A stretch of DNA of 62,289 nt from positions 1 to 62,289 of IMG/VR virus record IMGVR_UViG_3300046009_002641. One strand, given 5' to 3'. This document shows, piece after piece, positions 41,932-54,625 of the stretch (positions are counted from its first letter, which is position 1; the number at the start of each line of letters is the position of its first letter). This DNA comes from a virus. Made by a program: the position numbers and the translations under genes. The notes beneath the pieces are model-generated. The model did no database searches. It was not told the origin of the DNA and was given only the letters and a program-made list of their open reading frames with translations.

Positions 41932-42606
41932 TCATCTCCATTCTTTCTCTGTGTTATAATCTTCTTCCCGCTCAAGATCCTTTCGGCACGGCGGAATCCA
42001 GACAAATTTAGTGCGTGTGCCAATATTCCCATCGGCTTTTGATCCCCAAACAAGCCAGCAATAAGCCGTTGCTGTTGAGGCATTTTTGTCAACGCGCGCT
42101 TTGACCATGGGAACGCGCTCACTAAACTGTCCAATGATGTCCGGGGGGCTGACACCATAGAGTTGATTAAAGCGTCGAACTCCTTCCAAGAAGCTGGTTC
42201 GAACAAGAACTGCAACAGACTTTCTGGTTCTGCGGCTGTGGTTAATAAAATCATGCGCTCTTTTGAATGGTGGGTTTGTAATGACCCATTCAATATTAGC
42301 TGGCTCAAACTTTCCGGATGTATAATCGCAAGATCCGTGTTGTCCGTTCCAACCATAATCTGCGATGTCTGTTGACAGAACGGATTTGAAATATTCACTA
42401 AGTGGACGGGACATAAATCCTCTGCCACATGCTGGTTCCCATACACTAGAGCGCTGGATTCCATGGCCAAACTCACTTGGTTTAATGACATGCTCCATCA
42501 GAGCGCGCGTGGCCCATGGAGGGGTTGGGAAATCATCTAAGCTGTTTTGAGGCTCATGCCGTCTGGCGACGACCGCGTGAGACATGCCGGGCCCTAAATC
42601 AACCAT
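41932..42606 (-). CDS. N6-adenine DNA methyltransferase (gamma-type order)
   Basis: 224 residues from the ATG at 42606, eight bases after GGAGGT. SAM-binding motif I is WEPACGRGFMS; the catalytic motif IV is WVITNPPF. Motif I before IV places it in the gamma group, unlike CcrM (beta). The N terminus reads EPQNSLDDFPTPPWATRALME, a phrase common in small phage methyltransferases without a separate target-recognition domain. It may protect phage DNA or mark promoters. No partner nuclease of a restriction pair is adjacent. Confidence 0.8.
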   Translation of the reverse strand: MVDLGPGMSHAVVARRHEPQNSLDDFPTPPWATRALMEHVIKPSEFGHGIQRSSVWEPACGRGFMSRPLSEYFKSVLSTDIADYGWNGQHGSCDYTSGKFEPANIEWVITNPPFKRAHDFINHSRRTRKSVAVLVRTSFLEGVRRFNQLYGVSPPDIIGQFSERVPMVKARVDKNASTATAYCWLVWGSKADGNIGTRTKFVWIPPCRKDLEREEDYNTEKEWR

Positions 42607-43286: not shown

Positions 43287-43306
43287 GATGTCCTCCATTC
43301 CCCACC

Positions 43307-44163: not shown

Positions 44164-44191
44164 GTCATCCTCCATTCTGCTAGTGTTTGCT

Positions 44192-46494: not shown

Positions 46495-46729
46495 GTTCAT
46501 TTTCCTTATTGATTTCAGATTCGACGGTTTTCCAAGCTTCGTTAAACGCAAGCACGGCTATAGACAGATGCTTGGCGTATTTAGGATCGACAAATATACC
46601 CACCTTATCGGTAGCCAAAGTGTCGGTATTGTTATCGCCAATTTCCAAAGCCAGATGCTTGCCGTTTTTATACACGAAAGCTTTAAGCGGGCCATTTGCA
46701 AAATATGACACGTTTCTAGACGTCCTCAT
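46487..46729 (-). CDS. Small hypothetical early protein
   Basis: 80 residues from 46729 after AATGGAGAACTAAC. Pattern SYFANGPLKAFVYKNGKHLA, then FVDPKYAKHLSIAVLAFNEAW; no family recognised. It overlaps the exonuclease start by 8 bases. Confidence 0.62.
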   Translation of the reverse strand: MRTSRNVSYFANGPLKAFVYKNGKHLALEIGDNNTDTLATDKVGIFVDPKYAKHLSIAVLAFNEAWKTVESEINKENEHE

Positions 46730-46742
46730 GTTAGTTCTCCAT

Positions 46743-46949
46743 TCAAGCTGCAAGACGGATGATATCCCGGCTCACTTTAGTTTTTTGTAACCGGATTGCC
46801 TCCCGACCTCTGGCTGCTTCCCAAGCGCGTGAAATGCACTTGCCCCAAGTCCAGCCAAGGCCAAGCCTCTGAGATTGCCGCCACTGACGATGAGCATCGC
46901 GCATGACGGCTTTCCTGTCATATTTGGGTTTAGTCGTAATCTTCTTCAT
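46743..46949 (-). CDS. Small basic early protein
   Basis: 68 residues, strongly basic with several Trp (MKKITTKPKYDRKAVMRDAH, QSQRLGLGWTWGKC). It may be DNA-binding. Its start overlaps the previous gene by 20 bases. Confidence 0.6.
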   Translation of the reverse strand: MKKITTKPKYDRKAVMRDAHRQWRQSQRLGLGWTWGKCISRAWEAARGREAIRLQKTKVSRDIIRLAA

Positions 46950-47244: not shown

Positions 47245-47267
47245 AGCGGATCTCCATTCCGACAATA

Positions 47268-47761: not shown

Positions 47762-48153
47762 TCAAGCGCAGGCAGATAGAATCCGGTATTCAGCGCGGGA
47801 TCGTGCAATACATCCGTTCAGTCCTTCCAAGGGCTGTATTGATGGCGATTCCCAACGGTTCGCAGCGCACTGCATCTGGTCGCCCTGCCAACGCTGTGCC
47901 GGGTTTCCTGCCGGGCGCTCCTGATTTGATTCTTGCTTTGCCTAACCGTGAAGTGATTTGGATAGAGGTTAAGTCACCTATTGGCCGGTTGAGCGACAAC
48001 CAAAAACACGTTCACGCCATGCTTGATACGATAGGCCACAAGATTATTCTGGCGCGTTCGATTGACGATATTCGTGAAGCTTTTGCGTATTACGGCATAA
48101 AAACTAAGGATACATGGAATGGAGAACCTAGAGATGGCGAAGGAAGCAATTAA
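47755..48153 (+). CDS. VRR-NUC nuclease
   Basis: 132 residues from a GTG overlapping the previous stop. ALMAIPNGSQR-type opening, GFLPGAPDLILALPNREVIWIE-VK gives the D, E and K of the VRR-NUC PD-(D/E)XK site, then GRLSDNQKHVHAML. These small phage enzymes cut branched or junction DNA during replication and recombination. The next gene begins inside its last codons. Confidence 0.85.
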   Translation: MVIKRRQIESGIQRGIVQYIRSVLPRAVLMAIPNGSQRTASGRPANAVPGFLPGAPDLILALPNREVIWIEVKSPIGRLSDNQKHVHAMLDTIGHKIILARSIDDIREAFAYYGIKTKDTWNGEPRDGEGSN

Positions 48154-48727
48154 GTGGCAACATGAGTGGGTTGAGCACGCGAAAAAGATATTGGCTGCTG
48201 GCGGATCTATGGGCGAGGCAGCTAATGGCGTAAACCACAAATTTGGTGTTCGCGTAACCCGAAACTCCATGATTGGGAAAATCCATCGTTTAAAGGCTGA
48301 TGGCGATTTTAATTTGCCCGAACCTGAGCAATGGAAAAATAAATCCATGGAGACCTTTGTTAGCTATTGGCATAGCGGAATCTCCAGCACTGACATTGGG
48401 CATTACTTTGGGGTTGAGAGCAGCACAATCCGCGACAAAGCGTATAAATATGGATTGACCCCTAGAGGGACTGAAACTGGTTGGCGGGCGCTTAAAAAGC
48501 CTGTTCCTAAAACGGTGAAAGTCGCATCTGACGGTATTAGTAAGCGCACGACGTTTCCTAATCCTAAAGCCAAAGCTGTGCTGTTTGAAAATTTAACTAG
48601 CCGGATGTGCCGCTTCGTTATAGGGGATAAGCCTTTCTACTTTTGCGGCGCTGATGTCGAACTTGGTTCGCCTGTCCCTTACTGCACACATTGCAGGAAG
48701 GTGATGTATACGCCCTCTAATCGCTAG
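48134..48727 (+). CDS. GcrA-type cell-cycle regulator homologue
   Basis: I prefer the ATG at 48134 nine bases after GGAG (48119 is also in frame). 197 residues. The N terminus (VRVTRNSMIGKIHRLKADG) carries the GcrA DNA-binding signature, and the C terminus has CRFVIGDKPFYFCG with a later PYCTHC, matching the GcrA region that contacts sigma70. A second helix-turn-helix-like part (STDIGHYFGVESSTIRDKA) is inserted in between. GcrA activates methylation-dependent host promoters in Alphaproteobacteria, so this protein could redirect host RNA polymerase. Confidence 0.75.
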   Translation: MAKEAIKWQHEWVEHAKKILAAGGSMGEAANGVNHKFGVRVTRNSMIGKIHRLKADGDFNLPEPEQWKNKSMETFVSYWHSGISSTDIGHYFGVESSTIRDKAYKYGLTPRGTETGWRALKKPVPKTVKVASDGISKRTTFPNPKAKAVLFENLTSRMCRFVIGDKPFYFCGADVELGSPVPYCTHCRKVMYTPSNR

Positions 48728-52391: not shown

Positions 52392-52914
52392 GGCTGGTCG
52401 CAAGCGCAAAGAAGGTGATCGTTACCCTGCTGGCCAGATCCGTCCGGCTGAGGAAGGACCGTCTCCGGCTGCCATAAAACGTCTCCGCAGTGCGGCTATA
52501 CTTGGCATGGCTGATCCCCAATGGGGCAGCGTGGCCGGGCTTTGTTATCTCCAGAAGATGATCGACGATATTGAGTATGAAGCCGCCAAGCGGTTTGGGG
52601 ATCTCCACGCTCAGTATATCGGGGTGATTGGTGGTCCCCGTGCCCCAAAGACATCCACCGGAGAGCGCCCAACAAGGGCTGCTGAAATTGATGTAGATAC
52701 TGAGCAGGGTGATCGTGAGGCTAAGCGGCACATCACTGTCATGACACGCTACAATGACGCCCACACGGCTTTGCTGATGGTAAGCCCGGCGACTGAGGCC
52801 GATCTGATTCGGTTTTGCGCTATGCCGGGAGAATCGCCCACCGGGTATGAGGGAATGGTCCGTGTTCGCTCTGGGCTTCGGACGCTGGCTGCCCTGTGGA
52901 AAATATCGAAATAA
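52384..52914 (+). CDS. Hypothetical phage protein, basic N terminus
   Basis: 176 residues. GRKRKEGDRYPAGQIRPAEE opens a basic, Pro-rich N terminus; the rest is mixed. It overlaps the helicase by 8 bases. The phrase is known to me from unnamed phage proteins, with no function. Last gene of the rightward early operon. Confidence 0.6.
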   Translation: MARAGRKRKEGDRYPAGQIRPAEEGPSPAAIKRLRSAAILGMADPQWGSVAGLCYLQKMIDDIEYEAAKRFGDLHAQYIGVIGGPRAPKTSTGERPTRAAEIDVDTEQGDREAKRHITVMTRYNDAHTALLMVSPATEADLIRFCAMPGESPTGYEGMVRVRSGLRTLAALWKISK

Positions 52915-52937
52915 AAAAAGCCCCGCCGAAACGGGGC
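52913..52937 (-). terminator. Intrinsic terminator for the leftward operon
   Basis: Read on the minus strand: GCCCCG/CGGGGC stem with a 6-base loop followed by seven T. It ends transcripts coming from the small genes at 53122-53735. Confidence 0.8.
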
Positions 52938-52990
52938 AAATACCAAGGGAGGAAAACTCATCTTCTCATGGTATTTACGCTCAGTCAAAT

Positions 52991-53017
52991 TTGACTAGCT
53001 GTCAGATAGAATATAAA
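52991..53017 (+). promoter_or_regulatory. Operator-type promoter with no gene downstream
   Basis: TTGACT (52991-52996), agc, TGTCAGATA, and TATAAA at 53012-53017 (15-base spacer). A perfect palindrome GTCAAATTTGAC (52984-52995) overlaps the -35. It points at the terminator about 100 bases away. Confidence 0.6.
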
Positions 53018-53023
53018 TAAAAA

Positions 53024-53123
53024 ACAGAACCATCTGGTTCTCCTTTCTAACTTATTCGCCGGTCCCTATCCCGGTGATATGCCCCGCCAGCGTCATCTCC
53101 ATTCCGCTGGTGGGGCTTTTTTT
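53024..53123 (+). ncRNA. Candidate small regulatory RNA
   Basis: Between the promoter at 52991 and a strong terminator lies about 100 bases with three hairpins: AGAACC-ATCT-GGTTCT (53026-53041), CCGG-8-CCGG (59-74 of 53000) and the terminator stem. The 12-base terminator loop TCATCTCCATTC (53093-53104) is complementary to the conserved leader GAATGGAGA of many early genes, and TTCTCC at 53038 also fits GGAGAA. This suggests a trans-acting RNA that blocks early ribosome sites. An alternative is two mini-ORFs on the opposite strand. Confidence 0.5.
53081..53123 (+). terminator. Strong intrinsic terminator (12-bp stem)
   Basis: GCCCCGCCAGCG/CGCTGGTGGGGC (53081-53092 and 53105-53116) with one G-U pair, then seven T. 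It ends the rightward early operon and the candidate small RNA. Confidence 0.88.
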
Positions 53124-53325
53124 ATTTACGATACTTTTCGTATGTGGCTTTGGCCTTGGCAAAGTGACCGTTGGTTTCTGATTCAATTTCAGCTTCCGCA
53201 AACGGCTTGATTGCCTCCATAAGCTCATCGACCTTTAACTCTAACTTAGCCATTTCCCAGCGAAGTTGGGCTTCGCCAGATTTATGGGTTCGGATCGTGG
53301 TGACGTCAAAGATCGTGCGTTTCAT
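53122..53325 (-). CDS. Small coiled-coil early protein
   Basis: 67 residues, charged helix (MAKLELKVDELMEAIKPFAE). Last of three overlapping leftward genes; its stop is within the T tract of the opposite terminator. Function unknown. Confidence 0.6.
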   Translation of the reverse strand: MKRTIFDVTTIRTHKSGEAQLRWEMAKLELKVDELMEAIKPFAEAEIESETNGHFAKAKATYEKYRK

Positions 53326-53735: not shown

Positions 53736-53843
53736 TTTCTGTCTCCATTCTTCCAGTCTCCCCGGCGCTACGCTACCCGCGCTGTCGGCATTCCGGCTGT
53801 TGGCCCGCGCGAACCGTGACCTTCTCAGGGAGTGAGCGACAAT

Positions 53844-53914: not shown

Positions 53915-53929
53915 CAATGGAGAACTAAA

Positions 53930-54271
53930 ATGGCTAACGTCAAGAACGCCCCTGAAGGTATCTATTTTACGGAGCATGGATATAGCGAATGCTATCCGTG
54001 GATTGTTAAAAAGGTCAGCCCGTCAGGCAAGACAATTACGCTGGCGCGGGTTGAGACAAAAAATGACCCGGAGTGGAAGCCGAATTTTATCTCCGGCGGT
54101 TTCTGCGCTCATTGCGATAACCAGCATCAGCAGACATGGCTTTTCGATAGCATCTGTCCGATGAGAACAAGGACGATCCGTCTGAATAAAAAAGGCCAGT
54201 GGGTCCACAAAGATGTCATTTTTACAGAAGCGCCAAAAGGCCCATATTACTTCTACGATTACAATTTTTAG
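53930..54271 (+). CDS. Hypothetical early protein
   Basis: 113 residues after AATGGAGAACTAAA. Pattern EGIYFTEHGYSECYPWIVKK then FCAHCDNQHQQTWLFDS; the CxxC could bind metal. Ends YYFYDYNF. No family recognised. Confidence 0.6.
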   Translation: MANVKNAPEGIYFTEHGYSECYPWIVKKVSPSGKTITLARVETKNDPEWKPNFISGGFCAHCDNQHQQTWLFDSICPMRTRTIRLNKKGQWVHKDVIFTEAPKGPYYFYDYNF

Positions 54272-54329: not shown

Positions 54330-54358
54330 CAAATCATCAAAGTGAATGGAGAATCACG

Positions 54359-54625
54359 ATGAAATCTGAACTTGCTGATCGTTACGCCGCCCTGAAGATC
54401 GAACTGGAAGCCGCTCAGGCTGCTCTGGATGCGGTTAAAGCGGAGATCCTTGCCACCGGATGCGATATTCTGGAAGGCGATGATTTCCGGGTTAACGTGG
54501 GCCTTCAGGAGCGCACGACCATTTCCGCCAAGGAAGCTGAGAAGGTTTTGCCCCCGGATCTGTATGGCGTTCTGGCCAAGACCACCATGTTCCCGGCTGT
54601 CCGTTACAAAGCCATCCGGGCCTAA
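54359..54625 (+). CDS. Small helical phage protein
   Basis: 88 residues after AATGGAGAATCACG. A helical N terminus (YAALKIELEAAQAALDAVKA) is followed by a beta part (DDFRVNVGLQERTTISAKEA, VRYKAIRA). Proteins of this plan occur in phage early regions; role unknown. Confidence 0.62.
   Translation: MKSELADRYAALKIELEAAQAALDAVKAEILATGCDILEGDDFRVNVGLQERTTISAKEAEKVLPPDLYGVLAKTTMFPAVRYKAIRA

What the first reader, a model, noticed from the sequence alone, without database searches (positions are those of the whole stretch)
52984..53123. Candidate phage small RNA whose terminator loop is antisense to the conserved early-gene leader
An operator-type promoter (TTGACT-agc-TGTCAGATA, TATAAA) at 52991-53017 has no gene in front of it; about 100 bases on is a 12-bp terminator. 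The 12-base loop TCATCTCCATTC is complementary to GAATGGAGA, the ribosome-site leader found before at least seven early genes (43303, 44175, 46735, 47255, 53750, 53912, 54348). A second anti-ribosome-site run (TTCTCC) lies between hairpins 1 and 2. An RNA like this could shut off early genes as the repressor clears. The fit of nine or more bases is well beyond chance for one loop. Opposite strand mini-ORFs (14 and 11 codons) are an alternative explanation.
Basis: partly seen in the sequence, partly recalled or inferred. Interest (0 to 1): 0.85.

Follow-up and report, generated by a model that had tools for sequence, protein, structure and literature searches.

The report
Phage small RNA matching early-gene leaders
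A phage of alphaproteobacteria and three relatives carry a conserved ~100-base RNA gene whose end-hairpin loop is the exact complement of an eight-base tag in front of about eight of their early genes, so one small RNA probably controls translation of a whole set of phage genes.

Summary
A 12-bp terminator hairpin with loop UCAUCUCCAUUC follows a promoter that is one of only three exact copies of this phage's early-promoter motif. Three related contigs keep the unit in synteny with the same three-hairpin layout. Its body is more conserved than the next gene in one informative comparison (L004, 97% v 81%), not in the most distant one (L006, 75% v 76%). The opposite-strand mini-ORFs are not conserved, and the first has the wrong start spacing.

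GAATGGAG, the complement of the loop core, is the commonest 8-mer before ATG codons in all four genomes. It fronts seven window genes exactly, an eighth with one mismatch, and a ninth (a relic gene) over all 12 loop bases. Its flanks differ from gene to gene. Among 93 terminator loops in 127 sources, only the four orthologues match more than two ATG leaders. Relatives without the sRNA show no such leaders, though most are fragments.

Best reading: a trans-acting, probably repressive sRNA that reads a shared leader address with its terminator loop, as RepG and LhrC do. Transcription, pairing and direction are inferred. Main rivals: a plain terminator with a coincidental anti-Shine-Dalgarno loop, or an OOP-like antisense RNA against the leftward operon.

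The parts
52991..53017 (+). early-type promoter: TTGACT, operator half-site TGTCAGATA, TATAAA
   Evidence: exact match to TTGACN4TGTMAGATA, 1 of 3 in the window; 11 sites at up to 2 mismatches v 0.44 expected. -35/-10 kept in L005; operator kept with one change in L004
53024..53123 (+). predicted small RNA of about 100 nt; 5' end inferred from the promoter, 3' end from the terminator
   Evidence: syntenic orthologues in L004, L005, L006; covariance model finds one full-length plus-strand copy per genome and no other convincing match in 64 sources; fold z -7.6
53026..53041 (+). hairpin 1, AGAACC-AUCU-GGUUCU
   Evidence: 6 pairs invariant in four sequences; loop differs in L006
53042..53055 (+). 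unpaired C/U-rich linker CCUUUCUAACUUAU, a possible second anti-Shine-Dalgarno site
   Evidence: unpaired in the window fold; identical in L004 and L005, partly changed in L006
53056..53077 (+). hairpin 2
   Evidence: folds in all four; L006 uses a partly rewritten sequence that still makes a hairpin
53081..53116 (+). 12-bp terminator hairpin with 12-nt loop
   Evidence: stem invariant in all four, including a G-U pair that would be A-C on the minus strand
53093..53104 (+). loop UCAUCUCCAUUC, the proposed seed
   Evidence: complement GAATGGAG is the top 8-mer before ATG in four genomes; 4 of 93 terminator loops, all orthologues, match more than two ATG leaders
53117..53124 (+). U-rich tail of the terminator; overlaps the stop codon of the leftward gene 53325-53122
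   Evidence: sequence
43293..43300 (-). target leader GAATGGAG(G), gene 43286-42792, early promoter upstream
44170..44177 (-). target leader GAATGGAG(G), gene 44163-43849, early promoter upstream
46737..46744 (-). target leader GAATGGAG(A), 80-codon ORF starting at 46729
47252..47259 (-). target leader GAATGGAG(A), gene 47244-46930
48117..48124 (+). target leader GAATGGAG(A), GcrA-like gene 48134-48727
53743..53750 (-). target leader GAATGGAG(A), first gene of the leftward operon 53735-53122
53915..53923 (+). target leader CAATGGAGA, gene 53930-54271
54344..54351 (+). target leader GAATGGAG(A), gene 54359-54625
41932..41943 (-). leader GAATGGAGATGA, complementary to all 12 loop bases; the ORF is a 16-codon relic here and 240 codons in the L005 contig
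52915..52937 (-). terminator of the leftward operon, so leftward transcription probably crosses the sRNA gene
   Evidence: conserved in all four

Best explanation
The unit at about 53024-53123 (+) encodes a phage small RNA transcribed from its own early-type, operator-bearing promoter and ended by its own terminator. Its 12-nt terminator loop pairs in trans with the 8-9-base address GAAUGGAG(A/G) that overlaps the ribosome site of about eight early-region genes and lowers their translation together: a negative feedback or early-gene switch acting at RNA level. Shown: promoter motif, conserved fold, conserved loop, multi-gene address, exact complementarity. Inferred: transcription, pairing in vivo, repression rather than activation, timing.
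For: Promoter is one of three exact early-promoter motifs. The RNA body is 90/93 identical to L004 against 165/204 for the adjacent gene, Fisher p 7e-5. Three hairpins in all four genomes; the G-U pair in the stem points to the plus strand. In L005 a leftward gene with its own promoter is inserted just upstream of the sRNA promoter and leaves the unit whole. GAATGGAG is the commonest 8-mer before ATG in all four genomes, with unrelated flanks, so the motif looks selected rather than copied with a promoter cassette. Only the four orthologous loops among 93 match more than two ATG leaders. The variable 9th leader base in the window is A or G, both able to pair with loop U. Predicted net energies are -5.5 to -15.9 kcal/mol, with 0.25 kcal/mol to open the loop. 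Phages without the sRNA show no such leaders: none in 49 kb of MW202675.1, and at most one doubtful site in the fragments L083/L099 and L084.
Against: No transcript data. Only four orthologues, three of them identical in the loop, so covariation cannot be tested: no compensatory pair change. In the most distant member, L006, the RNA body is no better conserved than the adjacent gene (71/95 v 155/204), and its promoter is weak. Given a CUCC loop, matching the remaining four bases has a chance of about 1/256. Energy-based target enrichment is only marginal. Presence and absence of sRNA and leaders is one evolutionary event, on partial contigs.
Confidence: 0.55

Rival explanations
1. The hairpin is only the terminator of the rightward helicase operon (genes up to 52914), one of two facing terminators of converging operons. 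Its anti-Shine-Dalgarno-like loop is a coincidence and the promoter is weak or irrelevant.
For: The rightward operon has no other convincing terminator before 53117; the leftward one ends at 52920. Both terminators sit right against the stop codon of the opposing gene and share tail sequence.
Against: Does not explain the exact early-promoter motif, the conserved hairpin 1 and linker, or a loop that equals the complement of the top leader motif.
Confidence: 0.2
2. An OOP-like cis-antisense RNA: it pairs over its whole length with the 3' untranslated region of the leftward operon (53735-53122), which probably runs on to the terminator at 52920, and triggers RNase III decay of that mRNA.
For: Complete overlap on the opposite strand; a leftward terminator beyond it is conserved in all four genomes.
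Against: Antisense complementarity is automatic and needs no conserved loop or fold; it does not explain the shared leader motif. It could act alongside the trans role.
Confidence: 0.15
3. The feature is on the minus strand: ribosome sites and starts of two mini-ORFs (14 and 12 codons).
For: Minus strand reads GAATGGAGATG and AAAGGAGAACCAGATG; an ATG with AAAGGAG upstream is kept for ORF 2 in all four.
Against: ORF 1: its ATG starts 8 nt from the start of GAATGGAG, other leaders have 14-17; start codon lost in L006. ORF 2: reads MGSVS in L004 after a frameshift, other peptides unlike after the hairpin (sequences).
Confidence: 0.05
4. GAATGGAG is the site of an RNA-binding protein (a CsrA- or RegA-like repressor), and the minus-strand copy in a hairpin loop is a decoy or another site for it.
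For: AUGGA fits the ANGGA pattern of CsrA sites (own knowledge); GAAU is not needed to pair with 16S rRNA.
Against: The minus-strand stem carries an A-C mismatch; no such protein was sought or found in the window; the promoter points the other way.
Confidence: 0.05

Closest known systems
RepG of Helicobacter pylori (PMC8295292)
   Same: A C/U-rich terminator loop base-pairs with a G-rich stretch of an mRNA leader.
   Different: RepG is a chromosomal sRNA acting on a homopolymeric G-repeat of one operon; here the loop reads a defined 8-mer in front of about eight phage genes. No sequence relation was tested beyond the Rfam scan (no match).
LhrC of Listeria monocytogenes (PMC4132741)
   Same: [quoted passage not shown] covers a Shine-Dalgarno sequence.
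   Different: Host sRNA in several copies with UCCC motifs; here a single phage copy with CUCCAUUC.
OOP RNA of phage lambda (PMC5869508, PMC12197685)
   Same: Short phage RNA (77 nt) from its own promoter, ending at a terminator, antisense to the end of an opposing transcript.
   Different: OOP acts in cis on cII; this RNA has a loop fitting many unlinked leaders.
sar RNA of P22 and C4 RNA of P1/P7 (PMC12197685)
   Same: Small phage RNAs that pair with a phage mRNA and lower its translation.
   Different: One target each (ant), not a shared leader address.
C/U-rich anti-Shine-Dalgarno sRNAs of alphaproteobacteria (AbcR; 'cuckoo' RNAs, from memory)
   Same: Host group is probably alphaproteobacterial; anti-Shine-Dalgarno seeds.
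   Different: Chromosomal, with generic C/U-rich seeds; here the seed extends into a phage-specific tag. No match in Rfam.

Membership tests
trans-acting bacterial or phage small regulatory RNA | independent promoter and intrinsic terminator, no conserved ORF | tested here: met
   early-promoter motif, terminator, ORFs not conserved on either strand
trans-acting bacterial or phage small regulatory RNA | expressed as a discrete RNA | not testable with these tools
   no transcript data
trans-acting bacterial or phage small regulatory RNA | conserved unpaired seed complementary to unlinked mRNAs | tested here: met
   CUCCAUUC conserved in four genomes; complement is the top leader 8-mer
trans-acting bacterial or phage small regulatory RNA | pairing shown by compensatory change of seed and target | tested here: inconclusive
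   loop and leader core do not vary among the four; L006 has loop G and GAATGGAGC before at least two genes, a weak hint
OOP-like cis-antisense RNA | overlaps an opposing transcript | tested here: inconclusive
   lies between gene 53325-53122 and the conserved leftward terminator at 52920; leftward read-through itself not shown
OOP-like cis-antisense RNA | RNase III-dependent decay of the opposing mRNA | not testable with these tools
   needs an experiment
any known Rfam family | match above the gathering score | tested here: not met
   no match in the window
small protein gene on the minus strand | start codon at the usual spacing and conserved reading frame | tested here: not met
   spacing 8 v 14-17 nt; ATG lost in L006; frameshift in L004

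The most novel reading that the evidence does not exclude
This phage lineage runs an RNA-level regulon: many genes of its early region have acquired, independently, the same 8-base address at the ribosome site, and one phage sRNA reads the address with its terminator loop to switch the whole set at once.
Probability: 0.45. Interest if true: 0.78.

Novelty: new variant of a known kind. Interest (0 to 1): 0.66.

Why it matters
The phage sRNAs listed in a 2025 review (PMC12197685) act on one or a few targets, mostly in phages of enteric bacteria. An sRNA with a dedicated address shared by about eight unlinked genes would be a compact way to coordinate early-gene translation. It gives a directly testable prediction (swap the loop, swap the address) and offers a search rule: compare terminator loops with the commonest leader k-mer of a phage.

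Tried and rejected
Rfam: no match. Nucleotide search of the phage collection: no match; tblastn with three neighbouring proteins: none. Pattern scan of viral contigs for the hairpin: 15 hits, of which only three are orthologues; the rest look like chance sites in other contexts. Gene A relatives L083 and L084 have other genes where the sRNA would be. Gene A search of bacterial genomes: none. The minus-strand covariance-model hits at 52908-53047 and counterparts are read as a mirror effect of the palindromic hairpin 1 plus the facing terminator, not as a second sRNA. Hybridisation energies with shuffled loops: weak separation. Covariation: no power with four sequences. Replication origin: no TTATNCACA box near the unit. 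The first covariance model (R1) took a helix specific to L004 and was replaced. A plus-strand ORF from ATG 53079 has no conserved start (L005 and L006 lack it) and was dropped.

Full report
Setting. The window is an IMG/VR virus record. It has a large terminase gene, a portal gene, ERF and YqaJ recombination genes and a GcrA-like gene, a DnaA-C-domain protein and a Cro-like protein. GcrA and the nearest terminases in Bosea, Neorhizobium and Rhizobium records point to an alphaproteobacterial host; the host itself was not identified. The feature lies between two converging operons: rightward genes ending at 52914 and leftward genes 53735-53122.

The observation. The promoter is not just any hexamer pair: TTGACN4TGTMAGATA occurs exactly three times in the window, the other two being the promoters of the early genes at 43.3 and 44.2 kb. 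At up to two mismatches there are 11 sites against 0.44 in shuffles. The generic sigma-70 scan does not list this site, as the TTGACT-TATAAA spacer is 15, below that scan's minimum. The RNA folds at -44 kcal/mol against -21.5 for shuffles.

Relatives. Three contigs keep the locus in synteny: L004, L005 and L006. In all four the RNA has hairpin 1, a C/U-rich linker, hairpin 2 and the terminator. Against L004 the body is 90/93 identical while the adjacent gene is 165/204 (Fisher p 7e-5). Against L005 both are nearly identical, so nothing is learned. Against L006 the body (71/95) is no better conserved than the gene (155/204), but its parts differ: the terminator stem is 24/24, the loop 10/12 and hairpin 1 14/16, while hairpin 2 is partly rewritten yet still folds. 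The stem has one G-U pair in all four, which would be an A-C mismatch on the minus strand. In L005 a leftward gene with its own promoter and a GAATGGAGA leader has been inserted just upstream of the sRNA promoter, leaving the sRNA unit whole; this speaks for an independent unit.

Mini-ORFs. The first minus-strand ORF has its ATG 8 nt from the start of GAATGGAG, whereas the other leaders have the start 14-17 nt away, and L006 has no ATG there (GAATGGAGCTACG). The second ORF keeps AAAGGAG and ATG, but after the hairpin the peptides are unlike (MVLFFIYILSDS, MVLPLIYSLLGI, MVLHLFTFT) and L004 is frameshifted to MGSVS (read). Selection for these peptides is unlikely.

The leader address. GAATGGAG is the most frequent 8-mer within 20 nt upstream of ATG codons opening ORFs of at least 40 codons in each of the four genomes. 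It occurs ten times in the window against 2.4 expected, with 0 of 100 shuffles reaching that. One of the ten is the sRNA locus itself and one overlaps the helicase start codon. The bases on either side differ from gene to gene, and some sites lie at the end of an upstream gene without a promoter in view (48117, 46744), so the motif was not simply copied with a promoter. The GAAU part is not needed for pairing with 16S rRNA (own knowledge), which suggests another reader. In the window the base after GAATGGAG is A or G at the leaders, and loop U can pair with either; L006 has G in its loop at that place, and at least two of its leaders have C there. That is suggestive only, because several other L006 leaders keep A or G.

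Specificity of the match. Shuffled loops match as many ATG sites in 6, 0, 2 and 1 of 2000 trials in the four genomes; with CTCC kept, in 36, 7, 15 and 29. These site counts include alternative ATGs after one leader, so they exceed the number of genes. As an empirical control, among 93 terminator hairpins with 8-14-base loops in 127 sources, the four orthologous loops match 8-12 ATG sites and no other loop more than 2. The control sources are shorter on average than the phage genomes, which favours low counts. Energy-based comparison is less decisive. With accessibility, nine window leaders give net energies of -5.5 to -15.9 kcal/mol. The leader at 41943 is complementary to all 12 loop bases; its gene is intact in the L005 contig and a 16-codon relic in the window. 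L006's genome shows no alignment over this stretch in the synteny comparison, and its loop lacks the matching bases.

Phages without the sRNA. MW202675.1 (49 kb examined), L084, L101 and L102 have no GAATGGAG; L083/L099 has one, not at the usual distance from an ATG; L007-L010 have none at a gene start. This agrees with co-occurrence but is one event on partial contigs.

Mechanism. The best-supported account is a trans-acting sRNA that covers the ribosome site of early-region genes with its terminator loop. A loop-to-leader contact is established for RepG (PMC8295292) and LhrC (PMC4132741). Whether it represses, when it acts and whether a chaperone helps are not known. A cis-antisense effect on the leftward operon (compare OOP, PMC5869508) is compatible and may coexist. 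A plain terminator for the rightward operon remains the main dull alternative, and the hairpin may serve as such even if the sRNA account is right.

Status of each step. Shown by sequence: promoter motif, terminator, conserved fold, conserved loop, multi-gene leader, complementarity. Inferred: transcription, pairing in vivo, effect and timing. The operator half is intact in the window and near-intact in L004 only, so control by the phage repressor cannot be a general feature of the family. That the target genes are 'early' is itself an inference from their promoters and position in the replication/recombination region.

Noticed in passing
52938-52960 (minus strand), and the same place in L004, L005, L006: The leftward transcript carries a conserved UUUCCUCCCU just before its terminator (52937-52920), an anti-Shine-Dalgarno run that could make a 3'UTR-derived sRNA of the opposite operon.
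   Followed up: partly
41943-41880 (minus strand): A 16-codon ORF that begins and ends like a 240-codon gene of the L005 contig: an internal deletion here or an insertion there; its leader is complementary to all 12 loop bases.
   Followed up: partly
52900-52927 and 53109-53137: The two facing terminators share their tail and the gene ends next to it (90% over 28 nt, inverted): each gene's stop codon overlaps or abuts the A-run of the opposing terminator.
   Followed up: no
52983-52996: Perfect 14-base palindrome AGTCAAATTTGACT at the -35 region in the window, also present in L004.
   Followed up: no
L005 12145-12480: Leftward gene with its own promoter and GAATGGAGA leader inserted between the leftward terminator and the sRNA promoter.
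   Followed up: partly
48134-48727: Phage-borne GcrA-like cell-cycle regulator gene with the GAATGGAGA leader.
   Followed up: no
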